From positions 248,001 to 312,000 of the forward strand of contig NZ_QPJC01000004.1 of the NCBI RefSeq assembly GCF_003337235.1: a stretch of DNA of 64,000 nt, in the 5' to 3' direction. A model generated the notes under the pieces. The model did not search any database. It had not been told where the DNA came from and saw only the letters and a list, made by a program, of their open reading frames with translations. This DNA comes from Halopolyspora algeriensis (GTDB lineage: Bacteria; Actinomycetota; Actinomycetes; Mycobacteriales; Pseudonocardiaceae). Shown here piece after piece: positions 6,680-32,189 of this stretch (position 1 is the first letter of the stretch; the number at the start of each line of letters is the position of its first letter). The position numbers were made by a program, and so were the translations under genes.

Positions 6680-6877
6680 TCCCGCACTCTCCCACGCGAC
6701 CATTGAACTCATCGTTGTCGACTTCTGCGGATACGGTCACGCTCGTGGCGGTGTTTGCCCGAGTTTGCGAGTTCGCGCCGAGAAGGACCCGCAGCTCTGT
6801 GCGGCAAGAGGGCGGACGACTGCGCCAGCGGGAAAACTCGTTGGCCCGGATCGGGTGCTTCGTCTACTCTCCGGATC

Positions 6878-7411
6878 GTGCTGATCCGGGAAGCCGCCGA
6901 CCAAGACTGGCCGCACATTTATCCTTTCTTCTGCGATATTGTCGCCGCTGGACAGACCTTCGCCTACCCCGAGAACCCGACGCTCGAAGAAGCTCGGGCA
7001 TTGTGGATGGCACAACCTCCGGGCCGCACCGTGGTCGCCGTTGACGAGAACATCGTCGTGGGCACAGCCACGATGGGTCCGAACCGCCCCGGACGGGGAT
7101 CCCACGTCGCCACCGCCAGCTTCATGGTCGACCCGCACCACCACGGTCATGGCGCAGGCCGGGCATTGGGCAACGAGGTCCTCGACTGGGCCCGCTCGGC
7201 CGGCTACCGCAGCATTCAGTTCAACGCGGTCGTCGAGACCAACAGTGCCGCTGTCCACCTGTGGCAGAAACTGGGTTTCCGGATACTGACCACCGTCCCG
7301 GAGGCTTTCGACCACCCCGAGCACGGGCTCGTCGGACTTCACGTGATGTTCCAACACCTGGCCGAGACCGAAACCACGGGCGGCACGTCCGCGCAGCCAC
7401 CGCTCCACTGA
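6878..7411 (+). CDS. GNAT N-acetyltransferase
   Basis: A protein of about 177 residues with GNAT-fold motifs. It starts LIREAADQDWPHIYPFF. Motif A is ASFMVDPHHHGHGAGRALGN, whose Q/R-x-x-G-x-G/A-like loop (HGHGAG) binds the CoA pyrophosphate. Motif B is NAVVETNSAAVHLWQKLGF. It fits the phosphinothricin/MarR-neighbour style acetyltransferases acting on small molecules, substrate unknown. The start is a GTG where homology begins; upstream in-frame sequence is not family-like. The preceding methyltransferase gene is divergent. Confidence 0.88.
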   Translation: MLIREAADQDWPHIYPFFCDIVAAGQTFAYPENPTLEEARALWMAQPPGRTVVAVDENIVVGTATMGPNRPGRGSHVATASFMVDPHHHGHGAGRALGNEVLDWARSAGYRSIQFNAVVETNSAAVHLWQKLGFRILTTVPEAFDHPEHGLVGLHVMFQHLAETETTGGTSAQPPLH

Positions 7412-7987: not shown

Positions 7988-8460
7988 ATGTGTTCGGCTC
8001 CGGTCCGCACGGCTTCCCGGATGCGGTTGTAGGTGCCGCAGCGGCAGATGTTGCGGATCTCGTCCAGGTCCGCGTCACCGACCTCGTGTCCTTCCGCCCT
8101 GGCCTGGCGGACCTTGGCGACGGCGGCCATGATCTGACCCGGCTGGCAGTAGCCGCACTGCGCGACGTCGTGTTCGAGCCATGCCTCCTGCATCGGGTGC
8201 AGATCCTTGCCCACCGTGCCGGGCAACCCTTCGATCGTGGTGATCTCGTCGTCGGGCTCGATGTCGGCGACCCGCACCGAGCACGGGTTGAACGCCTTGC
8301 CGTTGATGTGGCACGTGCACGCCTTGCACACGTTGATGCCGCAGCCGTACTTCGGGCCGTAAACCTCGAGGATGTCGCGGATCACCCACAACAGCCGGAC
8401 GTCGTCCTCGACGTCCACGGTGACCTGCTTGCCGTTGAGCTTGAAAGTGTGTTCGGGCAC
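7984..8460 (-). CDS. [2Fe-2S] small subunit of xanthine dehydrogenase-family oxidoreductase (IorA-like)
   Basis: A 158-residue electron-transfer subunit. Residues about 1-75 are a plant-ferredoxin-like domain with Cys40, Cys45, Cys48 and Cys60. Residues about 85-150 are the helical domain with the second cluster, in CGYCQPGQ (102, 105) and CRCGTY (139, 141). It relays electrons from the molybdopterin subunit encoded just upstream in transcription order (8626-10965). No FAD subunit gene is nearby, as in isoquinoline 1-oxidoreductase and related two-subunit aldehyde oxidases. The start is a GTG behind the ribosome-binding-like GGAGATC. Confidence 0.95.
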   Translation of the reverse strand: MPEHTFKLNGKQVTVDVEDDVRLLWVIRDILEVYGPKYGCGINVCKACTCHINGKAFNPCSVRVADIEPDDEITTIEGLPGTVGKDLHPMQEAWLEHDVAQCGYCQPGQIMAAVAKVRQARAEGHEVGDADLDEIRNICRCGTYNRIREAVRTGAEHM

Positions 8461-11095: not shown

Positions 11096-11212
11096 TCAGC
11101 CCAGGAGCCGATCGCGCAAGATTCTCCCGAGGCACTTGCCGGTGCCGGCCTCGGGAATCGCGCCGACGAACCGAGCCTCGCCCGGCTTGGTGCTCACGAC
11201 GGCCTCAGTCAC
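11096..11212 (-). pseudogene. Relic of AMP-forming acyl-CoA synthetase, C-terminal tail
   Basis: On the minus strand a 38-codon stretch ends in TGA and reads FVGAIPEAGTGKCLGRILRD near its end. This is the terminal catalytic-lysine segment of an ANL-superfamily ligase (compare GSTGKILKKELR at the left end of the window). No matching N-terminal sequence exists to its right, so only the tail survives. It lies upstream of the molybdenum hydroxylase operon. Confidence 0.55.
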
Positions 11213-15331: not shown

Positions 15332-15448
15332 ATGAAACAGCACGGCCACAGCTCCATCGGCGTGACCATGAGCATCCACGCCCACGTGCCGGGTGACACC
15401 AAGCGGGAGATGTCCACCCGCATGAACCAGTTCCTGGGCGGCGACTGA
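15332..15448 (+). pseudogene. Integrase 3'-end relic 1
   Basis: The last 38 codons of a tyrosine recombinase, matching the end of the intact integrase at 30893-32056: HSSIGVTMSIHAHV, then DTKREMSTRMNQFLGGD. The catalytic Tyr of the intact copy (NIYAHV) is His here. Everything upstream of the GHSSIG block is lost. The downstream DNA keeps the double GATGTCA-like boxes, a terminator hairpin and a decayed att site in the same order as in the live element. Confidence 0.88.
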
Positions 15449-15469
15449 TGTCAACCGTGGACGTCGAAG

Positions 15470-15502
15470 GGGGCCGCCGGTGAAGCACCGACGGCCCCTT
15501 TT
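15470..15502 (+). terminator. Integrase terminator, relic copy
   Basis: A stem GGGGCCG/CGGCCCC followed by TTTT, the counterpart of the hairpin at 32077-32109 behind the intact integrase. Confidence 0.7.
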
Positions 15503-15504
15503 GT

Positions 15505-15548
15505 CCGGTCGGGACAGCGGGATGTGCACCCACGCCCCCTGCCTCCAG
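15505..15548. repeat. Decayed att site (tRNA-Pro 3'-half relic)
   Basis: Aligns with 32113-32157 from GGTCGGGAC to CTCCAG with several substitutions and about two missing bases. It lies after relic integrase 1 and its terminator, in the position att occupies in the live element. It marks an older insertion at the same tRNA gene. Confidence 0.75.
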
Positions 15549-15707
15549 TAGTGATCGGTTGGCTTTTTCGCAGCTCACGCGGGGCGCTAACCGAGTGGGC
15601 CACGTTGCTCGACCACTGGTTTGTTCGGGCTCGCGTCGGCCAGTGAGATGGTCCAGGCGGCGGAGCGTGCCGCGAATCCCCTGCCCGCACAGAGGAGGTA
15701 CATCACG

Positions 15708-16412: not shown

Positions 16413-16506
16413 TGCCCCTCGGATCCTGGCAGACCACCTGCCCGAGTGGACCTGGTGTTCTGCGAAACCAACCCGAGCCGCAAGGGAGCTGGTTTTCGCA
16501 GAACGT

Positions 16507-16580
16507 CCATGCCCACGTGCCGGATGACACCAAGCGGGAGATGTCCTCCCGCACGAACCAGTTCCTGGGAGGCGACTGAT
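16507..16580 (+). pseudogene. Integrase 3'-end relic 2
   Basis: The last 24 codons of the same integrase: VHAHVPDDTKREMSSRTNQF and the end. As in relic 1 the catalytic Tyr is His and the following Leu is Pro, so the two relics share an ancestor that was already inactive. Homology continues about 30 bases past the stop through the GATGTC boxes and into the first half of the terminator, then breaks. Confidence 0.85.
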
Positions 16581-16659
16581 GTCAACCGTGGATGTCGAAG
16601 GGGGCCGCCGATGAACAGCTGCGTGCCGTGGGACAGTGCCACCGCTGCCTGATTCGGCG

Positions 16660-19104: not shown

Positions 19105-19298
19105 GCGGACGAATCACGAGCTGGCCCTGCACGACGTCGGCTATGCCTCGGATCTGGCACACACTGGCTTCCACCCGCTCGACGGGGCGAACTTCCTGCA
19201 CGACGGCACCTACCCGGCTCGTGCACCTGGTCGCTCACCACTCTCAGGCCGCCCTCGAAGCGGAGAGGCGCGGGCTCTCCGCCGAACTGGCCGAGTTC
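19105..19298 (+). pseudogene. HD-domain protein relic
   Basis: Matches the middle of the intact HD gene at 24321-24899: LHDVGYASDLAHTGFHPLDG, then after a frameshift LVHLVAHHSQAALEAE. The fragment ends abruptly where the 338-bp repeat begins. It shows that the older element carried the same cargo. Confidence 0.88.
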
Positions 19299-19636
19299 CC
19301 GGCATCGGCCGCCAGGCCGCGCGCATGCTCGGCAGCCGGCCACCCGCGTGAGCGGTGCGCCGCAGGCGGGGTTGACGCCGATGTTCCCGGCTTTGATCCC
19401 GCGACAACAGCGGGATGGAGGCCGTACCAGGGCGAACCCGGCCGGTCGGCCGCGTTGTGCGCAACTCTGTTCCGCCTTCTTCCGACCTCGCGGCGTGCTC
19501 TCGCGCGAGTCAAGCCGCGGCGACCGCCCGGTGCAGAATCGAGCCTGCCGAGGCGACGCGCCAGGTCGCCCGGCACTTGGCCGTATCCAGCCCCGCCTCG
19601 CGGGGCGGCTTGAAGGCGTACAGAAAGTTCTCACAG
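19299..19636. repeat. 338-bp dispersed repeat, copy 1
   Basis: Aligns along its whole length with 22910-23246 at an estimated 85-90% identity by eye. It starts CCGGCATCGGCCGCCAGG and ends AAAGTTCTCACAG. Near the end is the hairpin GCCCCGC-CTC-GCGGGGC. No frame is conserved between copies, so it is not coding. Its left edge coincides with the break in the HD relic, which suggests insertion or recombination there. Confidence 0.85.
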
Positions 19637-19781
19637 ACGACAAGCAGGCCCGTGGCACAACCACCTGCACGTGTCGATGGTCACAATCTGGATTCTTTGG
19701 TTGCTGTGACGGCGAACTTGTCGATCAGGCAGGATGTGCCACGATTTGGATCATGACTCGCGCTAGAGGGAAGCAGAAGGC

Positions 19782-20117
19782 ATGTCAGGCGAGAGACAGT
19801 TCGGCGTCGATACCGACGCACTGCGCAAGGCCATTAAGGAGCTTGAGAAAGCTCGTGACCAAGCAACGAAGCTCGAGCAGGACGCAGGCGGGATCTCCCC
19901 TGGGGAGCTAACAGCCCAGGACGCGCATACCCAGAAGGCGCGGCAAATGTTCCAAGATCGTATGACTGGTGGGGAGGGGTCACTTCGCAGTTCGGCAAGC
20001 CACATTGCTAGGAAACTCCAGGAGAAAATCGATGCGTACAACGCGACGCTGGAAGAGTACGGCCGTGCCGAGGACAACGCGACCGCTGACGCGCAGCACA
20101 TCGAACGACGTTCATGA
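19782..20117 (+). CDS. Small WXG-like helical protein
   Basis: A 111-residue, highly charged, helical protein. The pattern VDTDALRKAIKELEKARDQA then IARKLQEKIDAYNATLEEYG suggests a two-helix hairpin like WXG100/ESX substrates, though no W-x-G is present. It lies 15 bases ahead of a DUF3558 lipoprotein gene, a pairing frequent in Pseudonocardiaceae (recalled, not tested). GC content is lower than in the core genes. It may be a secreted or surface partner of the lipoprotein. Confidence 0.7.
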   Translation: MSGERQFGVDTDALRKAIKELEKARDQATKLEQDAGGISPGELTAQDAHTQKARQMFQDRMTGGEGSLRSSASHIARKLQEKIDAYNATLEEYGRAEDNATADAQHIERRS

Positions 20118-20132
20118 GAAACGGTGGAGAGC

Positions 20133-20723
20133 ATGACGAGCAACCTGCGGCGAATCATGATCATGGGAGTTGGCTTGGCCTCAAGTCTTGTGCTTGCCGG
20201 GTGCGCTGGAAGTTCCAGCATGGAACCGGGCGGTCAACCTCCTACGATGCCGAAGACATCCACCGGTCCGGAAATCATTAACCCGAAGAATGCTGCAGCT
20301 CTCGACGTCTGTGGCCTTCTATCTTCTGAGGCTGCTACGAAGCTCGGTGTCAAGCCTGGCGGCGAAAAGAACTCGAACAGTCTGAACCCGGCAGTCCCGG
20401 ATGGGTGCATGTGGGAGAGTCCGGATGGCGGTGGCAAGAAGATCGGCTTTACAGCGATTGATGGCCGTTCAATCAAGACCTATTACAAGAAATCTCATTC
20501 CTATACTGACTTCGAGAAAATCACGGTAGCTGGACATCCTGCGGTCAGAGCGAACAAGACCGACCCGATGACAGGCGGAAGCTGCGATATTTACTTGGCG
20601 AGCAAGAAAAACCAAGTCGTTTACTCGTACGCTCGGACTCCCAAAGTTGGTGAGGTAAATCCTTGTGACTTGAGCAAGCAAGCACTGGAGCTGTCTGTGT
20701 CGTCGTGGCCCACCGCTAAGTAG
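20133..20723 (+). CDS. DUF3558-family lipoprotein
   Basis: A 196-residue lipoprotein. The signal peptide (MIMGVGLASSLVLAGC) ends in a lipobox, LAGC, so the Cys would be acylated and the protein anchored outside the membrane. The mature part has the DUF3558 pattern: LDVCGLLSSEAATKLG, DGCMWESPDGGG and a C-terminal CDIYLASKKNQVVYSY. Function unknown. It follows the WXG-like gene closely and is probably co-transcribed. The ATG at 20133 follows a GGTGGAG site; a GTG three codons upstream is possible. It sits in the older element, left of the inner att. Confidence 0.85.
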   Translation: MTSNLRRIMIMGVGLASSLVLAGCAGSSSMEPGGQPPTMPKTSTGPEIINPKNAAALDVCGLLSSEAATKLGVKPGGEKNSNSLNPAVPDGCMWESPDGGGKKIGFTAIDGRSIKTYYKKSHSYTDFEKITVAGHPAVRANKTDPMTGGSCDIYLASKKNQVVYSYARTPKVGEVNPCDLSKQALELSVSSWPTAK

Positions 20724-20747
20724 TTCCTCACAGTTCAGTAAGACTAT

Positions 20748-21113
20748 GAGCTGGTCTCACGTCGGCTCGCTGCCGTGGGACGTGATCCGGAGGCACGACT
20801 GTTCACCGGCCCGCGTGGAGGGCGCATCAGTACGGCGGTACTGCGCGATGCCACGTGCTGGGACGAGGTGGTGACCAAGCTCGGGTACGAGCACCTGCGG
20901 CGGCACGATTTGCGCCACACCGGACTGACGTGGATGGCCGATGCCGGTGTTCCGGTGCACGTGCTGCGCAAGGTGGCCGGGCACGGCACCATCACCACGA
21001 CCCAGCGCTACATTCACCCGAACCAGCAATCGATCAACGATGCCGGAGCCGCCCTGTCCGCATTCCTGAAGGGGGATCGGTCCCCACGTGGTCCCCACCT
21101 GAGGGCGGTGTGA
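20748..21113 (+). pseudogene. Tyrosine integrase, C-terminal fragment
   Basis: About 121 codons of a phage-type integrase of a different subfamily from the intact Int. It keeps RRHDLRHTGLTWMADAGVPV, VLRKVAGHGTITTTQRYIHP and an intact Tyr, but lacks the SAM-like domain and first catalytic Arg. It ends 78 bases before the inner att copy and has its own terminator. It must come from another element that used the same tRNA site. An ATG/GTG inside could still make a fragment protein. Confidence 0.88.
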
Positions 21114-21144
21114 GCGTGACTCGCGATCTCGTCCGAAACGAAAC

Positions 21145-21185
21145 AAGCCCGCTGACCTGGTCTTTCACCTCAAGTCAGCGGGCTT
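21145..21185 (+). terminator. Terminator hairpin after the integrase fragment
   Basis: A perfect 12-bp stem, AAGCCCGCTGAC/GTCAGCGGGCTT, about 17-base loop, 31 bases after the fragment's stop and 5 bases before the att repeat. It lacks a long T-tract. Confidence 0.75.
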
Positions 21186-21190
21186 GGCCG

Positions 21191-21236
21191 CTGGTCGGGA
21201 CGGCGGGATTTGAACCCACGACCCCCTGACCCCCAG
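21191..21236. repeat. Inner att copy (left end of the AICE)
   Basis: 46 bases identical to 32112-32157, running from the CCA end of tRNA-Pro to the first base of its anticodon loop. No tRNA 5' half follows, so this is the displaced att copy. Confidence 0.95.
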
Positions 21237-21334
21237 CTGTATGGACGAACGCCGTCACCTGGTGTTCTCGGTTGAGAGCGGATGGCTCGCTGACCGGTTC
21301 TCCCTGGTCGCATTCACCGCTGTTCGGTGCGGTT

Positions 21335-21354
21335 GATGTCAGGTGTGGATGTCA
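21335..21354 (+). promoter_or_regulatory. Paired GATGTCA boxes, left arm
   Basis: Two GATGTCA boxes 13 bases apart in direct orientation, 98 bases inside the left att. The same pair with the same spacing lies 37 bases inside the right att. They are probable integrase arm-binding sites (inference). Confidence 0.6.
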
Positions 21355-21481
21355 GTTAGCGCATCAACAGGCGAACTTGGTTGTGCTATCGCTGTTCGAG
21401 CGACGTACTTGATGGGCCACGACAACAAAAGCAAAGTACACTGAGATACCATGCTGCGAAAAATCATTCAGGGGGCTTGAA

Positions 21482-22816
21482 ATGGCCAGAAATCATCACC
21501 AAGAAGTCTTGGACGGAAATATTGGGTTCTTCTGGCCTATCGATGCAAATGGTCAAAGGCTGGAAGCCGATGATCAGCGCGGTTATATTCACCTGAAAGA
21601 GGATGGACGAATAAGACTGGAAACCTTAGATGAAAACCCAATACTCTCTTTTGCTAGACAGAGGGAGGATCGTGTCGATCGCCCAGATGCACTGTTAGGC
21701 AGCACGGCTAGCTCTTCAGTTCTTGTGCTTAACCTTTTTGGTTCCAGATCTACGGTTAATGTCGGCGGCTATCGAGCCTCTGTACGGAAATATTCTGCTC
21801 GGACTCTGATAAGTCGAGTCGACTTAGAGAATTTGTCCAGCATCTGTGCAACGGGCATCGAGGGAGAATTTTTTGAGGTGGAACGTTGGGCTCAATTTGA
21901 ACCTTCATGGGAAGCACTTAAACGCGATGAAAGCGGGCGTTTGAGAAGGTTTAGCATTGAGCTGGAGCCAATAATAGAACAAGATTCTGAAATCGACTCT
22001 AATCGATCGCTATACCTGTCCTCGAAATGGAAGGTGACTGGTCCATCTAGTAGGCGCACTATCTACTCGCCTGTAGTCGTGGGCTGTCGTTCCAACTTTC
22101 CAGTTCCATTTTCCGATCTCTTGAATCCTGTCCTTGCGGTGCAGAATTTACTCAGTATGGCATACGGTGGATTTGTTTCTGCTGCCGCAGGATCAGCTTT
22201 TTTGGATTGCAGGACCGAGCCCCGCGCTAGCCCATTTTGGACGACTCCGTTGATGCACACTCCTGCGGCGGTTCAGTCACCGCGGTCGATGACTCATGTT
22301 CCTCAATTTTCACTCGATATGCTTGGCGGCGTATCAGGATTGGCGAATTGGGTAAAATTAACTGATGAACATTCGCGGGCGGTAAAACCAATCGTTAACC
22401 AGTACCGATTTGGAGGATACTCGCCTGAATTGAAATTGATGGAAGTTGCCGCGGGGATAGAGTACTGGGTGAACGCAAGTCGTAGGAATTGTCAGTGGGC
22501 TAGGGTTGCTCCTAAGTCGCTCGCCCTGGCTGAGCATGTGGGACATCCGTTCAAGTCATGGATCAGATACGCCGAAAAATGGGCGGACATCTTTTGGCGT
22601 AGATATGGACAATTAAAGCATGAGCCCAACTATGAGCCCGATATTTATGAGATTAGCGTCCTTGCGGATGTGGGAGTTCATTTGTTGACTGCCGAATTGT
22701 TGAATTTTATATCGGACGCGAATAAAGACCCGGCGAGTCGATATTTTGAGTCTCCCCAGATGGTTTCATTGAAAGAGCGGATTCAATCGTTACTTGGCGG
22801 TCCCGGCGACGATTAA
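21482..22816 (+). CDS. ApeA-like protein with C-terminal HEPN-type domain (candidate antiphage)
   Basis: A 444-residue protein with no membrane segment. Residues about 1-290 are mostly beta (IGFFWPID, GYIHLKEDGRIRLETL, SSVLVLNLFG), like the N-terminal domain of ApeA, an abortive-infection protein. Residues about 310-440 are helical and contain R374-Y-G-Q-L-K-H380, an R-x5-H fit to the HEPN RNase motif. If correct, it would cleave RNA on phage infection. The call rests on architecture and memory of the family, not a search. The gene is AT-rich for this genome and has a CAGGGGG ribosome site. It heads the accessory end of the AICE. Confidence 0.55.
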   Translation: MARNHHQEVLDGNIGFFWPIDANGQRLEADDQRGYIHLKEDGRIRLETLDENPILSFARQREDRVDRPDALLGSTASSSVLVLNLFGSRSTVNVGGYRASVRKYSARTLISRVDLENLSSICATGIEGEFFEVERWAQFEPSWEALKRDESGRLRRFSIELEPIIEQDSEIDSNRSLYLSSKWKVTGPSSRRTIYSPVVVGCRSNFPVPFSDLLNPVLAVQNLLSMAYGGFVSAAAGSAFLDCRTEPRASPFWTTPLMHTPAAVQSPRSMTHVPQFSLDMLGGVSGLANWVKLTDEHSRAVKPIVNQYRFGGYSPELKLMEVAAGIEYWVNASRRNCQWARVAPKSLALAEHVGHPFKSWIRYAEKWADIFWRRYGQLKHEPNYEPDIYEISVLADVGVHLLTAELLNFISDANKDPASRYFESPQMVSLKERIQSLLGGPGDD

Positions 22817-22840
22817 TTACACGCAACACGCACTCGCCGC

Positions 22841-22884
22841 CATCCCGCTGTCCTTGCCGCCCCACTGCCGGGGTTATCGGCGTC
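22841..22884. repeat. 44-bp repeat, copy 2
   Basis: 38 of 44 bases match 5294-5337. It lies 25 bases left of the 337-bp repeat, so the full repeat unit may begin here. Confidence 0.6.
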
Positions 22885-22909
22885 AACCCGGCAACCACCG
22901 CTCACGCCA

Positions 22910-23246
22910 CCGGCATCGGCCGCCAGGCCGCGCGCATGCTCGACAGCCGGCCACCGGCGTGAGCGGTGCGCCGCAGGCGGGGTTGATGCCGATGTTCCCG
23001 GCTTTGATCCTGCGGCAACAGCGGGATGGCGGCCCGACCAAGGCGAACGCGGCCGGCCGGCCGCGTTGTGCGCAACTGTGTTCCGCCTTCTTCCGCCCTC
23101 GCAGCGTGCTCTCGCGCGTGCCAAGCCGGGCGCGACCGCCCGGCGCAGAGCCGAGCCTGCGAGGCGGCGCGCCAGGTCGCCCGGCTCTTGGCCGCGTCCG
23201 CCCCGCCTCGCGGGGCGGCTTGAAGACGTACAGAAAGTTCTCACAG
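22910..23246. repeat. 337-bp dispersed repeat, copy 2
   Basis: Full-length counterpart of 19299-19636. Here it separates the two defence-type genes: it begins 94 bases after the first and ends 51 bases before the second. It has much higher GC than either gene. It keeps the terminal GCCCCGC-CTC-GCGGGGC hairpin and the AAAGTTCTCACAG end. It may be a non-coding RNA, a MITE-like element or a recombination cassette border. Confidence 0.85.
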
Positions 23247-23297: not shown

Positions 23298-24293
23298 ATG
23301 AGTTCTATGGATGATGTGAGTCTTGCGCGACCTGAGGGAATTGACGAGCCTGCGTGGACGTCGATTACTAAGCATCGCGATCGCCTCAAGGACGCGCTAT
23401 TGCGCTCGGATCGTCCTCACGTGCTCGGGTGCGCTAAAGATCTTGTGGAGTGTGTTGCTCGCGTTGTTGTCTCGGAACTTGGAGACATCACCAGTGAATC
23501 CGATGACTTCCCTACGGCATTAGGAAAGGCCCACAAAACCCTTAAACGTCAACCTGGAATTGACCTTACCGACGACCCATCCCTTCAGAAATTAGCACAA
23601 GGTGCTAAAAATATTGCGATTGCAGTAAATGAATTTCGAAATTCGCGTGGAACCGGGCATGGTCGTGTTAGAGATCCAATAGTAGAAGACGAAGTATATG
23701 AAGCTTCCCTCATGGGAGCCTTGCTTTGGGTTCGATGGAGTCTCCGTCGCTTAGAATACTTGATTCGCGGAATGCCGAATTCTTTGATACGCGATCTCAG
23801 TGAAGGCGCTAAATTTTACCGAGAGGATCTTGCCGAGCGTTTGGTAGCTGCCAGTCTCGCAAACCTTGAGACGGATACACTTCAGCGGCTAGGGAAGGCC
23901 GTTGGACAACGCGCAAAGACAGGTACATTCAATGTACAAGAGGAGGGAGTCGAGAAGTGCAGCGAGTCTAGCGACCTAATGCAGTGGCCAGTTGGATACC
24001 GAGAAGGACTAGCCAGAAGCATGTTTTTTAGCGAAAATGGCCGAGTTCAGGTAACACAGTGGTCTTCAGAGTATGCAGCTGGAGTAATTTCTGGAATACC
24101 CGACCCTGAATCCATATTAGACGAGATGATAAGTATACTACCAAATGTGGATAGTTCTGACCTTAATAGCATCAACGATGATAGCATCATCTACAAAAGA
24201 CTCATCGACAGTAAGGACTTATTTGAAGAACCTTACCGCTCGAAATGGATAGAGTTTGCAGTTCGATTCAAGCCGTCGAGTCATCCATTTTGA
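23298..24293 (+). CDS. Abi_C-like abortive infection protein
   Basis: A 331-residue soluble protein. The N-terminal half has helices with PHVLGCAKDLVECVARVVVS and the motif FRNSRGTGHGR (113-123), which matches the Abi_C/HEPN-like signature R-N-x-x-G-T-G-H-G. R114-x6-H121 would be the RNase pair. The C-terminal half is polar and unrecognised. Abi_C proteins are linked to phage exclusion, but few have a defined mechanism. Codon use is AT-rich like 21482-22816 and unlike the AICE core. The ATG at 23298 lacks a strong ribosome site; another Met follows at residue 4. Confidence 0.7.
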   Translation: MSSMDDVSLARPEGIDEPAWTSITKHRDRLKDALLRSDRPHVLGCAKDLVECVARVVVSELGDITSESDDFPTALGKAHKTLKRQPGIDLTDDPSLQKLAQGAKNIAIAVNEFRNSRGTGHGRVRDPIVEDEVYEASLMGALLWVRWSLRRLEYLIRGMPNSLIRDLSEGAKFYREDLAERLVAASLANLETDTLQRLGKAVGQRAKTGTFNVQEEGVEKCSESSDLMQWPVGYREGLARSMFFSENGRVQVTQWSSEYAAGVISGIPDPESILDEMISILPNVDSSDLNSINDDSIIYKRLIDSKDLFEEPYRSKWIEFAVRFKPSSHPF

Positions 24294-24320: not shown

Positions 24321-24899
24321 ATGGTCCTTTCCGGGTATCCTAGTGTTGTGACGCTATTCGCCTGGGCCTACGGAGTCGCAGAACACAAGCTCGCTAGCGT
24401 GCTACCGCGTCGCTGGGAGCACGTGCAGGGCGTGGCTCGTCAGGCGCGCAGCTTGCAACCTATGGCAGGTAGTGATGCGGACCTGTTGGAGTCGGCGGCG
24501 ATCCTGCATGACGTGGGCTATGCGCCGGACATCGCGCACACTGGCTTTCATCCCCTGGACGGGGCGAACTTCCTTCACCTGATCGACGCACCCGCTCGGC
24601 TCGTGCATCTGGTTGCTCACCACTCCTACGCCGCACTCGAAGCTGACCTACGGGAACTCTCTGCCGAGCTGTCCGAGTTCGAGGATGAGCGAGGCTCGCT
24701 GCGGGATGCGCTGTGGTACTGCGACTTGACGACGACCCCGGACGGTGAAGTCATCGACGCTCGAGACCGGATCGCTGAGATTCAGCAGCGTTACGGCCCG
24801 GATCACCTGGTTACTCGGTTCATCACGCAAGCATCGCCGGAACTGCTCGCGGTGGTCGATCGCACGGAACGCCGGCTTTCGGCTGTCGCGGCTGGCTAG
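24321..24899 (+). CDS. HD-domain phosphohydrolase
   Basis: A 192-residue HD-superfamily protein. The metal residues are His34 (RRWEHVQGVARQ) and His63-Asp64 (AAILHDVGYAPDIAHTGFHP); a later His-His (LVHLVAHHSYAALEA) fits the helix-4 ligands. Such enzymes hydrolyse nucleotides or signalling phosphates; the substrate is unknown. It converges on the NUDIX gene with a 4-base overlap of ends. A truncated relative sits at 19105-19298, so it is a standard cargo of these elements. The start is uncertain: ATG 24321 lacks a ribosome site and GTG 24348 is an alternative. Confidence 0.88.
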   Translation: MVLSGYPSVVTLFAWAYGVAEHKLASVLPRRWEHVQGVARQARSLQPMAGSDADLLESAAILHDVGYAPDIAHTGFHPLDGANFLHLIDAPARLVHLVAHHSYAALEADLRELSAELSEFEDERGSLRDALWYCDLTTTPDGEVIDARDRIAEIQQRYGPDHLVTRFITQASPELLAVVDRTERRLSAVAAG

Positions 24900-27028: not shown

Positions 27029-27808
27029 ATGGCCAAGTCTAGCCGTACCCGTCGCCGCTCGGCGACTCCGGACTTCGTGGAGATCCTGCCCCAGCCCAAG
27101 CAGTGGATCGGATTTTCCATCCTCGGGCTACTGGTGCGCTGGCGCGCCGAACTGACCGGCGCCGCCGTGCTGCTTGCCGTGTTCGTCTGGCTGGATGGCT
27201 TCGGCAGCGCGGTGCTGACCGTGGCGGTGCTGGTCGGTGTTCCGGCCGTGCTGCTGGCCGTGCCGCACACGCGGCGGTTCCTGGTGGCTCGCGTGTGGTG
27301 CGTGGCCGATCGGCACCGGCTACGGGCGTGTTTGAAGCGCACCAAGGTGCGCACGATGAACCGGGACGGGACCTATCCATTCATGCTGTGGGCGCGTCCC
27401 ACCACCACCGGGGAACGGATCTGGTTGTGGCTGCCCGCCGGGACGGCGGCCACCGATATCGAAAACTCCCTGGAATACGTGGCTCCGGCCTGCTTCGCCC
27501 GCAGCGCTCGGCTGCACCGGCCCAAGAAGGTCACCACGTTCGTGGCCGTGGACATCATCCGCCGCGATCCCCTTGAGGCGAAGAAACCGGTGTCCTCGCC
27601 GCTGGCCGGCTTCATGGGCACCCGCTCTGCACCGAGTGATTCCGAATCGGTGACTCCGATCAAGGCCGCTTCCTCGGCCTCCGAGTCCCAGGCTTCCGAA
27701 CCGTCTGATTCGGCTTCGACCAGCACAAAAACCACCACCGCGGCCAAGCCAGCTGCGGCCGGTGCGGTGGTCGTCAACGGAGAGGACCTGAGTGACTATG
27801 TGGACTAA
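27029..27808 (+). CDS. Membrane subunit preceding the transfer ATPase (split Tra N-terminus)
   Basis: A 259-residue protein with two close transmembrane segments at about 30-90 (LTGAAVLLAVFVWL, VLTVAVLVGVPAVLLAV), a cytoplasmic domain with GTYPFMLWARPTTTGERIWL, and a Ser/Thr/Ala-rich low-complexity tail of about 60 residues. In single-chain TraB/FtsK proteins these parts precede the motor. Here the reading frame ends and the ATPase starts 17 bases earlier in another frame, so the protein is probably the membrane anchor of a two-part DNA translocase for mycelial transfer. Confidence 0.8.
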   Translation: MAKSSRTRRRSATPDFVEILPQPKQWIGFSILGLLVRWRAELTGAAVLLAVFVWLDGFGSAVLTVAVLVGVPAVLLAVPHTRRFLVARVWCVADRHRLRACLKRTKVRTMNRDGTYPFMLWARPTTTGERIWLWLPAGTAATDIENSLEYVAPACFARSARLHRPKKVTTFVAVDIIRRDPLEAKKPVSSPLAGFMGTRSAPSDSESVTPIKAASSASESQASEPSDSASTSTKTTTAAKPAAAGAVVVNGEDLSDYVD

Positions 27809-28619
27809 AACCCGCTCGGCGGACTCGGTGCCGGTTTCGGGGCTGTCCATCTACGATCCCGTGCACCTCGGCATCGACGAACACGGCCGCCGCGTGGACA
27901 TCGAACTCGTCTACCGCAACATCCTGTTCGGCGGTGAGCCCGGCTCGGGCAAGTCCAGCGGACTGCAAAACATCATCGGGCACGCCTCCATGTGCACCGA
28001 CTGCCAACTGTGGCTGTTCGACGGCAAACAGGTCGAACTCGGCCTGTGGCGCTCCATCGCCGACGTGTTCGTCGGCCCGGACATCACCGAGGCCATCGAC
28101 CGGTTGGAACAGCTCCAAAAGGAAATGGATCGTCGTTACGACGAGCTGGACCAGGTGCGACGCCGCAAGATCACCTCGGTGGATCCGGTCGATGTGATCG
28201 TGGCCGTCATCGATGAGATCGCCCTGTTTTCGGCGACACTGGGCAGCAAGGACCAGCAAGAGCAGTTCGTGCGTCTGCTGCGGGATCTGGTGGCCCGCGG
28301 GCGTGCTGCCGGGGTCATCGTGGTCGCGGCCACGCAGCGGCCCTCGGCCGACATCGTGCCGACCTCGCTGCGCGACATCTTCGCCTACCGGTGTGCCTTC
28401 CGGTGCACCACCGAGGCCAGCTCGGACACCATCCTCGGCCGCGGCTGGGCTCAACAGGGCTACTCGGCCACCGCGATCGCACCGGAGAACCTCGGTGTCG
28501 GCCTGCTGCTGGCCGAAGGTGGCATTCCCCGGCGGATGAAATACGCCTACCTCACCGACGCCCACATTTACGGCCTGGTCGAACACTCCCAACACCTGCG
28601 CACCCAACACGCCGCCTGA
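27792..28619 (+). CDS. FtsK/SpoIIIE-type DNA transfer ATPase (TraB-like)
   Basis: A 275-residue RecA-fold motor: Walker A GGEPGSGKSSGL, Walker B VIVAVIDEIALFS, then VARGRAAGVIVVAATQRPSA and RDIFAYRCAFRCTTEASSDT, typical of FtsK/SpoIIIE motors of AICEs, which move double-stranded DNA between hyphae. No membrane segment and no gamma winged-helix domain are visible; the anchor is in the overlapping upstream gene. The GTG start overlaps that gene by 17 bases, with an ATG two codons later as alternative. A hairpin follows the stop. Confidence 0.92.
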   Translation: MTMWTKTRSADSVPVSGLSIYDPVHLGIDEHGRRVDIELVYRNILFGGEPGSGKSSGLQNIIGHASMCTDCQLWLFDGKQVELGLWRSIADVFVGPDITEAIDRLEQLQKEMDRRYDELDQVRRRKITSVDPVDVIVAVIDEIALFSATLGSKDQQEQFVRLLRDLVARGRAAGVIVVAATQRPSADIVPTSLRDIFAYRCAFRCTTEASSDTILGRGWAQQGYSATAIAPENLGVGLLLAEGGIPRRMKYAYLTDAHIYGLVEHSQHLRTQHAA

Positions 28620-29156: not shown

Positions 29157-30683
29157 GTGACCGTCTCGACCGCAACACTCACCCCCGGCGCCCACGCGGC
29201 CCCGGGGGCGGGTGCTGTTGCCGAGCCGGACGACTGGGCCGGCCTGCTCCACCGCGCCGCCCAAGCCGACTACGACCGGTGGCTTTCCCACATCACTCCG
29301 GCCGCCGGATGTCGCTACCCCATCCAACTCGCCGGACGCTCGCGCACCGCCGACGCCTCCACCGGCGAAATCCTGGCCGATCTCGACACCGCCCGGTTTC
29401 CCGACGGGGTGCTCTACACCGCCTGCGGCAACCGGCGCGCCTCGGTGTGTCCCTCCTGCGCCGAAACCTACCGCGGTGACACCTTCCACCTGGTGCGCTC
29501 CGGCCTGCTCGGCGGCAAAGGCGTGCCCGACACCGTGGCCGAGCATCCGACCGTGTTCGTCACCCTGGCCGCTCCCTCGTTCGGCGAGGTGCACACCGCC
29601 CACAAAACCGGCAAGCCCTGCCACCCCCGCCGCGAGCCGCACATCTGCCCGCACGGGATCACGTTCTCCTGCCTGCGCCGCCACGAATCCGGCGACCAGT
29701 GGGCCGGACAGCCGTTCTGCCTGGACTGCTACGACCACTTCAGCCAAGTCGTGTTCAACGCCTACGCCGGGGAACTCTGGCGCCGCACCACCATCAATCT
29801 CCGCCGGGCAGTCGGCAGACTGGGCAAGGACTACGGTGTCAAGCTGCGCGTCTCGTATGCCAAGGTCGCCGAGTTCCAAGCGCGCGGCGTGGTGCACTTC
29901 CACGCCCTGATCCGCCTCGACGGCGTCGATCCGGCCGACCCGGCCGCCATCGTGGCCCCGGATCCGCGGATCCATCCGGCCACGTTCGAGCACACCATCC
30001 GCCAGGCCGCGGCCTCGACCAGCTTTCGCACCCCAGCACACCCGGACCAACCCGACGGGTGGCCCATGGCCTGGGGACACCGCTCCATCGACACCCGCCA
30101 AGTCAAGTTGACCGTGCGCGACACCGACGATTCCGGCGCGCTCACCGACGGCGCGGTGGCCGGATACCTGGCCAAGTACGCCACCAAGGCCACCGAGGAA
30201 ACCGGCCACGTCTCCCGCCGCCTCACCCACGAGACCGTGGGTTACCACGCCGACATGCACACCCACCCCGGCCGGCTCATCGCCGCCTGCTGGTACCTCG
30301 GCCAACTCCCCGACGGGCTGGCTTACCTCGATGACGACGTGAGCGAGCGCATCGCCTTCCAACACCGCTGGGCACGGCTGCACCGGTGGGCGCACCAACT
30401 CGGCTTCGGTGGCCACTTCTCCACCAAGTCGCGGCGCTACTCCACCACCCTCGGTGCACTCCGCGCCGCTCGCCGCTCCTGGAACCGCCCCGACCCCGAA
30501 CAGCCACCCACCGAGCCGACCGAACCCGGCGACGAGCCCGACATCCTCACCCTCGGACAACTCATCTTCGCCGGAATCGGCTGGCACACCAGCGCAGACG
30601 CCCAACTCGCCAACACCGCAGCCGCCCAAGCCCGCGAGCGACGCCAAGCTGCCCGCGAAGAACTCGAAACTTTCCCGCCATAG
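29157..30683 (+). CDS. RepSA-like replication initiator
   Basis: A 508-residue initiator for rolling-circle-type replication of the excised element. The N-terminal zinc-type cluster is YTACGNRRASVCPSCAETYR. Two further Cys/His groups follow (HICPHGITFSCLRRH, FCLDCYDHFSQ). The HUH motif is VVHFHALIRLDG, and AGYLAKYATKATEETG holds the candidate nicking Tyr region (YLAKYATK). Length and order match RepSA of pSAM2. The tail is Pro/Glu-rich. The start is a GTG after GAGGAG. It is directly followed by Xis and Int. Confidence 0.92.
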   Translation: MTVSTATLTPGAHAAPGAGAVAEPDDWAGLLHRAAQADYDRWLSHITPAAGCRYPIQLAGRSRTADASTGEILADLDTARFPDGVLYTACGNRRASVCPSCAETYRGDTFHLVRSGLLGGKGVPDTVAEHPTVFVTLAAPSFGEVHTAHKTGKPCHPRREPHICPHGITFSCLRRHESGDQWAGQPFCLDCYDHFSQVVFNAYAGELWRRTTINLRRAVGRLGKDYGVKLRVSYAKVAEFQARGVVHFHALIRLDGVDPADPAAIVAPDPRIHPATFEHTIRQAAASTSFRTPAHPDQPDGWPMAWGHRSIDTRQVKLTVRDTDDSGALTDGAVAGYLAKYATKATEETGHVSRRLTHETVGYHADMHTHPGRLIAACWYLGQLPDGLAYLDDDVSERIAFQHRWARLHRWAHQLGFGGHFSTKSRRYSTTLGALRAARRSWNRPDPEQPPTEPTEPGDEPDILTLGQLIFAGIGWHTSADAQLANTAAAQARERRQAAREELETFPP

Positions 30684-30704: not shown

Positions 30705-30893
30705 ATGACCACAGTGGAGCCCGTTCTGCTGCGCGTCGAGGAAGCTGCCGAAGCCCTGCGCGTTGGTCGAACGCGGATCTATGACCTGATCCGGCTCGGT
30801 CGACTGCGGTCGGTCAAGGTGTCCGGTTCGCGCCGTATCCCTCGTCAGGAGCTCGATGCCTACGTCACCTCGCTGCTCGAGGAGGAGAACTGA
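30705..30893 (+). CDS. xis: Excisionase (MerR-like helix-turn-helix)
   Basis: A 62-residue DNA-binding protein with LRVEEAAEALRVGRTRIYDL and SGSRRIPRQELDAYV, the winged-helix fold of AICE excisionases. It would bend DNA at attL/attR so that Int can excise the element. An AAGGAGAG site lies 21 bases after Rep. Its stop overlaps the Int start by one base (TGATG), so Xis and Int are made together, as in pSAM2. Confidence 0.93.
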   Translation: MTTVEPVLLRVEEAAEALRVGRTRIYDLIRLGRLRSVKVSGSRRIPRQELDAYVTSLLEEEN

Positions 30894-32056
30894 TGCCGCG
30901 TAAGCAGGCCAACGGGATGGGCACCATCGTCCAGCGCAAGGACGGCCGGTACCACGCGGCTGTCTACGTCTACACGCCCACCGGCGAACGGGTCCGCAAG
31001 TACGTCTACGGCAAGACCTGGCAGGAGGTGCACGACAAGCGCATCGAGCTGCTCGACAACAACCGCAAGGGCATCCCCTCGGTGACCTCAAGCATGAAGC
31101 TCACCGACTATCTCGACTACTGGTTACGGGAAGTCGCTCGGCATGAGCTGCGCACGAAGACGTTCTCCGATTACGAGGCTCTGGCATCGCACTACATACG
31201 CCCGCACCTGGGTGCCAAGCGGTTGAACGCGCTCGGCGTCGGTGATGTTCGTACCTTCCTGCGCAAGGTCAGTACCCAACCGGGGCGCAAGGGCAGGAAG
31301 CTGTCCCCTCGTACGGTGCAGTACATTCATGCGGTCCTGCGCAGCGCTCTGCAACATGCGGTACGCGAAGAGCTGATCGGCCGCAACGTCGCCAAGCTGG
31401 TGTCGGCTCCCAGCAGCGAGGAGCACGAAGTCGCGCCGATGGAGCCTCGGCACGCACGGCGGCTGATCGAACACGCCCAACAGCACTGGCTGTGCGCGCT
31501 GTGGTTGGTCTACCTCGCCACCGGGCTTCGCCGGGGCGAAGCTCTGGGGCTGGCCTGGTCGGATGTCAACCTGGCCACCGGGGAGCTGCGAGTCCGGCGG
31601 ACGGTCCAGCGCGTCAAAGGTGACATCGTTTTCGGCGAACCGAAGACAGCACGGTCACGGCGAACCCTGCACCTGCCCGAGATCTGCGTACACGCGCTCA
31701 AGCAGCACCGGGAGACCGTCGCCGAACGGTCGCTGCCCGCCCAGCGCAATCCCCACCCGCACCAACCGGCAGATCTGATCTTCGTGACCCGTACCGATCG
31801 GGTCATCGATCCCCGCAGCGTCAACCGCGCTTTCGGCACCCTGCTCAAGCAGGCAGGGCTCGAGCATGTCCGGGTGCACGATCTCCGACACACCTGCGCG
31901 ACGTTCCTCAAGATGCAGGGCGCCACCGACCGGGAGGTCATGGAACAGCTCGGCCACAGCTCCATCGGCGTGACCATGAACATCTACGCCCACGTGCTCG
32001 ATGACACCAAGCGGGAGATGTCCACCCGCATGAACCAGTTCCTGGGCGGCGACTGA
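30893..32056 (+). CDS. int: Tyrosine integrase of the AICE
   Basis: A 387-residue site-specific recombinase. The N-terminal arm-binding domain is QRKDGRYHAAVYVYTPTGER, the core-binding SAM-like domain covers about 65-165, and the catalytic domain has LATGLRRGEALGLAWSDV (Arg I), RVHDLRHTCATFLKMQGA (His-x-x-Arg), LGHSSIGVTMNIYAHV (His and nucleophilic Tyr). All catalytic residues are present. It reads toward the tRNA-Pro gene, whose 3' half is the crossover target. Three 3'-end relics of integrases lie to the left, two of them of this same type. Confidence 0.96.
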   Translation: MPRKQANGMGTIVQRKDGRYHAAVYVYTPTGERVRKYVYGKTWQEVHDKRIELLDNNRKGIPSVTSSMKLTDYLDYWLREVARHELRTKTFSDYEALASHYIRPHLGAKRLNALGVGDVRTFLRKVSTQPGRKGRKLSPRTVQYIHAVLRSALQHAVREELIGRNVAKLVSAPSSEEHEVAPMEPRHARRLIEHAQQHWLCALWLVYLATGLRRGEALGLAWSDVNLATGELRVRRTVQRVKGDIVFGEPKTARSRRTLHLPEICVHALKQHRETVAERSLPAQRNPHPHQPADLIFVTRTDRVIDPRSVNRAFGTLLKQAGLEHVRVHDLRHTCATFLKMQGATDREVMEQLGHSSIGVTMNIYAHVLDDTKREMSTRMNQFLGGD

Positions 32057-32074
32057 TGTCAACCGTGGATGTCA
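32055..32074 (+). promoter_or_regulatory. Paired GATGTCA boxes, right arm
   Basis: Two GATGTCA boxes 13 bases apart, the first overlapping the Int stop. Between TGATGTCA and GTGGATGTCA only three bases differ from the left-arm copy at 21335-21354. Probable integrase arm sites. Confidence 0.6.
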
Positions 32075-32076
32075 AA

Positions 32077-32109
32077 GGGGCCGCCGGTGGTGTACCGACG
32101 GCCCCTTTT
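32077..32109 (+). terminator. Integrase terminator
   Basis: A stem GGGGCCG-CC-GGT paired with ACC-GA-CGGCCCC, followed by TTTT, 20 bases after the Int stop. Confidence 0.85.
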
Positions 32110-32111
32110 GC

Positions 32112-32157
32112 CTGGTCGGGACGGCGGGATTTGAACCCACGACCCCCTGACCCCCAG
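32112..32157. repeat. Outer att copy (right end of the AICE, within tRNA-Pro)
   Basis: 46 bases identical to 21191-21236. It forms the 3' half of the functional tRNA-Pro gene. Confidence 0.95.
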
Positions 32158-32189
32158 TCAGGTGCGCTACCAAACTGCGCCACGTCCCG
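32113..32189 (-). tRNA. tRNA-Pro (anticodon GGG)
   Basis: A 77-base tRNA with CCA encoded. Acceptor stem CGGGACG/CGTCCCG, D-arm GCGC/GCGC, anticodon stem CCTGA/TCAGG with loop CTGGGGG, T-arm GTGGG-TTCAAAT-CCCGC. All stems pair, so the gene stays functional after element insertion, because the element restores the 3' half. It decodes CCC and probably CCT codons. Confidence 0.97.

What the first reader, a model, noticed from the sequence alone, without database searches (positions are those of the whole stretch)
19299..23246. 338-bp non-coding repeat in both the live and the decayed element
19299-19636 and 22910-23246 align end to end, with matching ends (CCGGCATCGGCC ... AAAGTTCTCACAG) and a GCCCCGC-CTC-GCGGGGC hairpin, yet no shared frame. 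Copy 1 begins exactly where the HD gene relic breaks off. Copy 2 lies between two cargo genes. It could be a MITE-like element, a structured RNA or a cassette-exchange hotspot.
Basis: seen in the sequence. Interest (0 to 1): 0.7.

Follow-up and report, generated by a model that had tools for sequence, protein, structure and literature searches.

The report
Single-strand replication origin of mobile element
The repeated non-coding block is most likely the DNA landmark that lets a rolling-circle mobile element turn its single-stranded copy back into double-stranded DNA, and the same landmark recurs across actinobacterial elements and classical Streptomyces plasmids.

Summary
The repeat is real: 19299-19636 and 22910-23246 are 92% identical, and a third copy lies elsewhere in the genome. 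Copy 2 is full length (about 22830-23246). Copy 1 has lost the first ~80 nt, where it is fused to an HD-gene relic.

The block is neither a MITE nor a gene. It is a fixed, oriented part of pSAM2-type integrating elements (AICEs). In 54 of 54 AICE neighbourhoods with both element and RepSA, across several actinobacterial families, it lies on the same strand as RepSA and upstream of it. Its 3' core also occurs in autonomous rolling-circle plasmids (pIJ101, pJV1, pSN22, pTSC2), downstream of rep on rep's strand. In pIJ101 that is where the literature places the single-strand origin (sti/sso).

The 5' half folds as single-stranded DNA: 24 of 46 pairs show compensatory changes. Hairpin loops are mostly of the DNA-type GNA/GNNA kind. 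A promoter-like TTGAC-N17-GAYNAT has its -35 in the stem and its -10 mostly in an unpaired bubble.

The clt loci of pJV1 and pIJ101 map elsewhere. Best reading: the element's single-strand origin, related to Streptomyces sso's, with an extra promoter-like hairpin. Function is untested.

The parts
22830..23246 (+). Copy 2: full-length single-strand-origin-like element of the live AICE
   Evidence: Homologous to about 375-380-nt elements of other AICEs with matching 5' and 3' limits; DNA fold z = -7.4.
22836..23033 (+). Domain I: long imperfect hairpin, arms 22836-22892 and 22977-23033, with an inner hairpin
   Evidence: Inverted repeat I2; MFE fold; covariation in 35 homologues, 24 of 46 pairs with changes on both sides, 0/500 shuffles.
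22970..22978 (+). GCC-GCA-GGC mini-hairpin with GNA triloop
   Evidence: GNA triloop closed by C-G in 34 of the 35 aligned sequences (GAA or GCA; L098 is the exception).
22983..23011 (+). Promoter-like TTGATG-N17-GATCCT; -35 in the stem, -10-like part mostly in the internal loop
   Evidence: Alignment columns T, T, G 35/35, A 34/35; -10-like G, A and final T 35/35; reading direction is out of the hairpin base.
23034..23198 (+). Domain II: further GC-rich hairpins, less conserved
   Evidence: MFE fold; alignment A4.
23200..23216 (+). Terminal hairpin GCCCCGC-CTC-GCGGGGC
   Evidence: in homologues the loop is GNNA in 42 of the 54 in which a hairpin was found.
23217..23246 (+). 3' core GGCTTGAAGACGTACAGAAAGTTCTCACAG, the most conserved part; flanks diverge after it
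   Evidence: reversed-pattern control 0 hits; also in pIJ101, pJV1 and pSN22.
19299..19636 (+). Copy 1: decayed copy without the first ~80 nt; -10-like box GATCCC has lost the invariant T; fold z only -2.25
19126..19298 (+). HD-gene relic fused to copy 1 (deletion junction between tandem AICEs)
   Evidence: Repeats D3 and D5 against HD gene 24321-24899.
20775..21113 (+). Integrase relic of the decayed AICE
   Evidence: PF00589, E 6.5e-13.
21191..21236 (+). Left attachment site of the live AICE, identical over 46 nt to the tRNA-Pro end
   Evidence: Repeat D4.
32113..32189 (-). tRNA-Pro (GGG) used as attachment site (right end of the live AICE)
   Evidence: ARAGORN.
21482..22816 (+). Cargo: gene with ApeA_NTD1 domain, between att and the element
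   Evidence: PF18862, E 9.8e-36.
23298..24293 (+). Cargo: gene with Abi_C domain, just after the element
   Evidence: PF14355, E 9.8e-6; weak AbiJ hit.
24321..24899 (+). HD-domain gene of the live AICE
   Evidence: PF01966.
27792..28619 (+). FtsK-like transfer gene
   Evidence: PF01580.
29157..30683 (+). RepSA rolling-circle replication initiator
   Evidence: PF20199, E 6.8e-152.
30893..32056 (+). Tyrosine integrase
   Evidence: PF00589, E 9e-27.

Best explanation
The element is the single-strand (minus, lagging-strand) origin, sso, of rolling-circle-replicating pSAM2-type AICEs. Once the AICE has excised, RepSA nicks it and a single strand with the sense of rep is displaced (family knowledge). 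In that strand the element folds into a long hairpin plus smaller GC-rich hairpins, which host factors recognise to prime the second strand. The most likely primer maker is RNA polymerase, reading a promoter formed by the hairpin itself (-35 in the stem, -10 mostly in a bubble) outward from the hairpin base. SHOWN: the anatomy, covariation, fixed strand and place relative to rep, and the shared 3' core with Streptomyces rolling-circle plasmids at the place given in the literature for the pIJ101 sso. INFERRED: the priming activity, the priming enzyme and the role of the 3' core. Copy 2 is the origin of the live AICE. Copy 1 is a truncated remnant left by a deletion between tandem AICEs.
For: (1) Place and strand: 30 of 30 AICE neighbourhoods with RepSA in the home family, 13 of 13 in distant families and 11 of 11 core-bearing AICEs chosen by RepSA alone have element and RepSA on one strand, element upstream. 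On the excised circle this is downstream of rep. (2) The core motif occurs in the rolling-circle plasmids pIJ101, pJV1, pSN22, pTSC2 and a 14-kb S. zaomyceticus plasmid, always downstream of rep on rep's strand. In pIJ101 the order is rep, sps/spdA2, core, which is where PMC4170104 places the sso and PMC11985553 sti. (3) Single-strand folding: z -7.4; 96.7% of cells paired, 24 pairs with double changes, 0/500 shuffles, slid controls 37-47%. (4) GNA loop in 34 of 35 and GNNA loop in 42 of 54, the loop classes PMC4686876 describes as extraordinarily stable DNA mini-hairpins. (5) TTGAC-N17-GAYNAT with A and T of the -10-like box invariant though mostly unpaired. (6) Core and hairpin persist with different Rep families (RepSA; Rep_1-like) and in three RepSA-Int elements without detectable Tra, as expected of a host-factor-dependent sso.
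Against: No functional test exists here. The plasmids share only the 3' core (about 60-110 nt), not the 5' hairpin, which is also missing or different in Actinomycetospora and some Pseudonocardia elements. PMC4170104 reports that pSN22 second-strand priming is RNA-polymerase-independent, so the promoter reading may be wrong even if the sso reading is right. The -10-like box has G, not T, in its first position, and the consensus fold pairs that G across two weak base pairs. 9 of 20 short-RepSA AICEs showed no core at 3 mismatches. I located the pIJ101 sso by gene order, not by published coordinates.
Confidence: 0.88

Rival explanations
1. It is the cis-acting transfer locus (clt) bound by the FtsK-like Tra protein.
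For: It is non-coding, one per AICE, and most AICEs with it also carry Tra on the same strand.
Against: In pJV1 the nine CCGCACA[CG][CG] repeats that define clt (PMC3583192) lie at 11107-11133 and 33-81, while the core is at 6775-6800. In pIJ101 three clt-type G[CA]AAC repeats cluster at 6898-6919, near an 80-aa ORF that fits korB, and the core is at 7267-7292. 14 of 22 elements have no 8-mer present three times. The core persists without detectable Tra (L138, L141, L151) and with different Tra types.
Confidence: 0.03
2. It is the double-strand origin (dso), with the CTTGA of the core as the RepSA nick site.
For: The core begins hairpin-CTTGA, which resembles pC194-type nick sites (from memory).
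Against: The core is shared between RepSA and Rep_1-type replicons, whereas a dso is Rep-specific. pIJ101 has a separate CTTGGGA site near the rep start, record 1337. pIJ86 replicates without sti and without everything between rep and sti (PMC11985553). repSA itself has a conserved inverted repeat at its 5' end that is a better dso candidate.
Confidence: 0.04
3. It is a structured RNA (regulatory RNA or attachment-associated RNA) transcribed from the AICE.
For: Strong covariation and fold; a GC hairpin near the end could terminate transcription.
Against: No Rfam family matches near threshold. Loops are GNA and GNYA, which are stable in DNA but not the RNA GNRA class. The common denominator is rolling-circle replication rather than any gene.
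Confidence: 0.04
4. It is a MITE-like or other mobile repeat that happened to insert twice.
For: Two copies in the window, a third elsewhere.
Against: No terminal inverted repeats; fixed place and strand in AICEs and plasmids; the truncated left end of copy 1 coincides with loss of 80 nt of element, so it is not an element end.
Confidence: 0.01

Closest known systems
Single-strand origins (sso/sti) of Streptomyces rolling-circle plasmids pIJ101, pJV1, pSN22
   Same: 3' core (hairpin followed by CTTGAnnnnGTAnnGAAAGTTnTnnC), non-coding, downstream of rep on rep's strand.
   Different: The AICE element is about 380-417 nt and adds a conserved 5' promoter-like hairpin domain that was not found in the plasmids; the replicon uses RepSA rather than Rep_1-type initiators and integrates.
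ssoA/ssoU/ssoT/ssoW of Firmicutes rolling-circle plasmids and sso1 of ICEBs1 (PMC5703833, PMC4595007)
   Same: Works like: strand-specific, structured, host-factor-dependent second-strand origin separated from rep by gene cassettes; ssoA forms a large structure primed by RNA polymerase; sso1 is the precedent for an sso in an ICE.
   Different: No sequence relation was tested or seen; host group and rep type differ; GC-rich with GNA/GNNA mini-hairpins.
Frpo, the single-stranded promoter of plasmid F (from memory)
   Same: Works like: promoter made by a hairpin in single-stranded DNA, -35 in duplex, -10 in a mismatched part, transcript leaving the hairpin base.
   Different: Acts in conjugative entry; no sequence relation tested.

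Membership tests
sso (single-strand origin of rolling-circle replicons) | Lies on a rolling-circle replicon | tested here: met
   RepSA (PF20199) in 30 of 33 motif-selected home-family neighbourhoods and 13 of 20 distant ones; rolling-circle plasmids.
sso (single-strand origin of rolling-circle replicons) | Fixed orientation relative to rep / leading strand | tested here: met
   54 of 54 AICE loci and 5 of 5 plasmids on rep's strand.
sso (single-strand origin of rolling-circle replicons) | Extensive secondary structure in one strand | tested here: met
   z -7.4; covariation.
sso (single-strand origin of rolling-circle replicons) | Sequence relation to a functionally mapped sso | tested here: inconclusive
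   Core shared with pIJ101, pJV1 and pSN22 at the gene-order position of the pIJ101 sso (PMC4170104); published coordinates could not be checked.
sso (single-strand origin of rolling-circle replicons) | Lowers single-stranded DNA and raises stability, only in one orientation | not testable with these tools
   Needs a plasmid assay.
RNA-polymerase-primed sso (ssoA type) | Single-stranded promoter with -35 and -10 | tested here: inconclusive
   TTGAC-N17-GAYNAT conserved, -10-like box mostly unpaired; activity not testable here.
clt of Streptomyces plasmids | Plasmid-specific direct repeats at the mapped locus | tested here: not met
   pJV1 and pIJ101 clt-type repeats lie elsewhere; elements lack pJV1-type repeats.
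MITE | Terminal inverted repeats | tested here: not met
   Inverted arms are internal; ends are not complementary.
MITE | Target-site duplications and empty sites | not tested
   Not pursued once place and strand proved fixed.
Known structured RNA family | Match to an Rfam model | tested here: not met
   No match near threshold over the element.

The most novel reading that the evidence does not exclude
A whole clade of AICE single-strand origins carries a built-in single-stranded promoter: a hairpin whose stem forms the -35 and whose bubble exposes the -10, pinned by DNA-only GNA mini-hairpins. It sits next to a 3' core shared by rolling-circle plasmids and integrating elements across the Actinomycetes, so that one host factor would serve second-strand synthesis for unrelated Rep systems.
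Probability: 0.45. Interest if true: 0.68.

Novelty: new variant of a known kind. Interest (0 to 1): 0.55.

Why it matters
AICEs are known to replicate by RepSA rolling circle, but the survey and papers I could read name no single-strand origin for them (PMC3218068 has none). A conserved, sequence-searchable sso core would mark rolling-circle elements, including decayed ones, across actinobacterial genomes; would give a test for how second strands are primed in this phylum (RNA polymerase or primase); and would explain why a constant non-coding block borders the variable, often defence-related cargo of these elements.

Tried and rejected
Omega-RNA/TnpB remnant and bridge-RNA ideas: dropped once the neighbours proved to be AICE genes. 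GNAT-gene remnant (the reverse of the 5' arm reads like a GNAT C-terminus): dropped, since frames are not conserved and the arm covaries with its partner. Direct BLAST of a Pseudonocardiaceae element against plasmids and phages found nothing; the link came from Streptomyces AICE copies and a 57-nt composite core query that I assembled by hand. A covariance model of the 3' part was built, but its genome search failed, so patterns were used. MAFFT on the 3' domain gave only 9 consensus pairs, so covariation is claimed for the 5' domain only. Integrase arm-site role: rejected because the att-element distance is 1.6 kb in the window and the core occurs on non-integrating plasmids. The idea that only long-RepSA AICEs carry the element: rejected.
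Full report
OBSERVATION. The two blocks align end to end with the stated ends and hairpin, at 92% identity, E = 2e-134. They are not identical in extent: copy 2 continues about 80 nt further left. Those 80 nt belong to the element, because they recur in a third copy at G000:C1:304500-304879 and in homologues of other genomes, and because they pair with the middle of the block (arms 22836-22892 and 22977-23033). No reading frame is shared.

SETTING. Copy 2 lies inside an intact pSAM2-type AICE. It runs from an attachment site at 21191-21236, identical over 46 nt to the end of tRNA-Pro at 32113-32189, and holds ApeA_NTD1, Abi_C and HD genes, an FtsK-like Tra, RepSA and an integrase. Copy 1 lies in a decayed AICE to its left, which ends in an integrase relic (20775-21113) at the same attachment site. 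In intact AICEs the order is att, element, cargo, HD, NUDIX, XRE, Tra, RepSA, Int. In the decayed one an HD relic stands to the left of a 5'-truncated copy. A deletion running from an HD gene into the element of the next tandem AICE explains both truncations at once, and so the sharp junction at 19298/19299. This history is inferred.

DISTRIBUTION. Sequence searches found the 3' end in 37 of 297 genomes of the family and, as a motif, in named Pseudonocardiaceae. With up to 3 mismatches the motif occurs in 31 of 348 genomes of the order and 25 of 345 of the class, while the reversed control pattern gives none. I then looked at what surrounds each copy. Of 33 home-family neighbourhoods, chosen by the motif only, 30 have RepSA within the fetched stretch, and in all 30 it is on the element's strand and downstream. 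The same holds for 13 of 13 RepSA-bearing neighbourhoods in distant families. Conversely, of 20 AICEs chosen by a shorter RepSA and not by the motif, 11 carry a diverged core, all on RepSA's strand and upstream; shuffled sequence gave no such hit.

PLASMIDS. Streptomyces AICE copies matched small autonomous plasmids. A 57-nt composite core query then found the classical rolling-circle plasmids pIJ101, pJV1, pSN22 and, partly, pSVH1. The core lies downstream of rep on rep's strand in pIJ101 (7267-7292, minus), pJV1 (6775-6800), pSN22 (371-396), pTSC2 and a 14-kb S. zaomyceticus plasmid. PMC4170104 states that spdA2 lies between rep and the single-strand origin of pIJ101; the sps palindromes of spdA2 (8140-8184) do lie between rep and the core. 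PMC11985553 calls sti the site of second-strand synthesis, downstream of rep. The core thus sits where the sso is described; I could not check nucleotide coordinates of the published sso.

STRUCTURE. As single-stranded DNA copy 2 folds far better than shuffles (z -7.43); decayed copy 1 hardly does (z -2.25). In 35 homologues the 5' domain forms 46 pairs, 96.7% of cells paired, 24 pairs with changes on both sides; no shuffle reaches these values, and slid versions fall to 37-47%. The structure was derived from the same alignment, which favours it somewhat, but the gap is large. A GNA triloop closed by C-G is kept in 34 of 35 and the terminal hairpin has a GNNA loop in 42 of 54. PMC4686876 describes GNA and GNNA loops with two or more G-C pairs as extraordinarily stable DNA mini-hairpins. 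Most of the GNNA loops have a pyrimidine in third place, so they are not the RNA GNRA class.

PROMOTER-LIKE FEATURE. On the 3' arm, reading out of the hairpin, stands TTGAC-N17-GAYNAT (N16 in a few). TTG is invariant and the A is kept in 34 of 35. In the -10-like box G, A and the final T are invariant, yet all but the first base are unpaired in the consensus fold, so pairing does not explain their conservation. The place and direction are those expected of a hairpin promoter that primes the complementary strand. The first base is G rather than T, and PMC4170104 reports RNA-polymerase-independent priming for pSN22, so the primer maker stays open.

RIVALS. clt: the nine pJV1 repeats that define clt (PMC3583192) lie at 11107-11133 and 33-81, and three clt-type repeats of pIJ101 at 6898-6919, both apart from the core; three RepSA-Int elements without detectable Tra keep the core. 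dso: the core crosses Rep families, and pIJ101 has a separate nick-like site near the rep start. RNA: not excluded, but the loop types and the tie to rolling-circle replication argue against it. MITE: no terminal repeats, place and strand fixed.

VERDICT. The block is best explained as the single-strand origin of the AICE, related to Streptomyces plasmid sso's through its 3' core and distinguished by a 5' promoter-like hairpin domain. Function is inferred, not shown.

Noticed in passing
window 15505-15550, 21191-21236, 32112-32157; 15332-15472, 16463-16603, 20775-21113, 31940-32080: A tandem array of AICEs at one tRNA-Pro: three att copies and four integrase 3' ends, only one of them part of an intact element.
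   Followed up: partly
window 29157-29216 and homologues L044-L070: The first codons of repSA carry a conserved inverted repeat (CCCCACCAC-N7-GTGGTGGGG in homologues), a candidate double-strand origin inside the gene.
   Followed up: no
G000:C1:304500-304879 (L003, L041): An orphan third copy with an internal deletion and no RepSA within the fetched 20 kb, apparently the last trace of a lost AICE.
   Followed up: partly
window 21482-22816 and 23298-24293: Two defence-like genes (ApeA_NTD1 and Abi_C domains) flank the origin; the ApeA-like gene lies between att and the origin, and L148 has an ApeA-like gene upstream of its copy too.
   Followed up: no
window 19782-20723: A WXG100-like small ORF (by eye; no Pfam hit) and a DUF3558 lipoprotein gene sit as cargo after decayed copy 1.
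   Followed up: no
L058/L059 (Amycolatopsis tucumanensis contig, 95,620 bases): Two AICEs face each other about 16 kb apart, each with its own origin copy; one has a broken RepSA.
   Followed up: no
L087 (JOAA01000055.1): A contig titled Rhodococcus rhodnii comes from a 12.4-Mb genome placed in the window's family, so the title is probably wrong.
   Followed up: no
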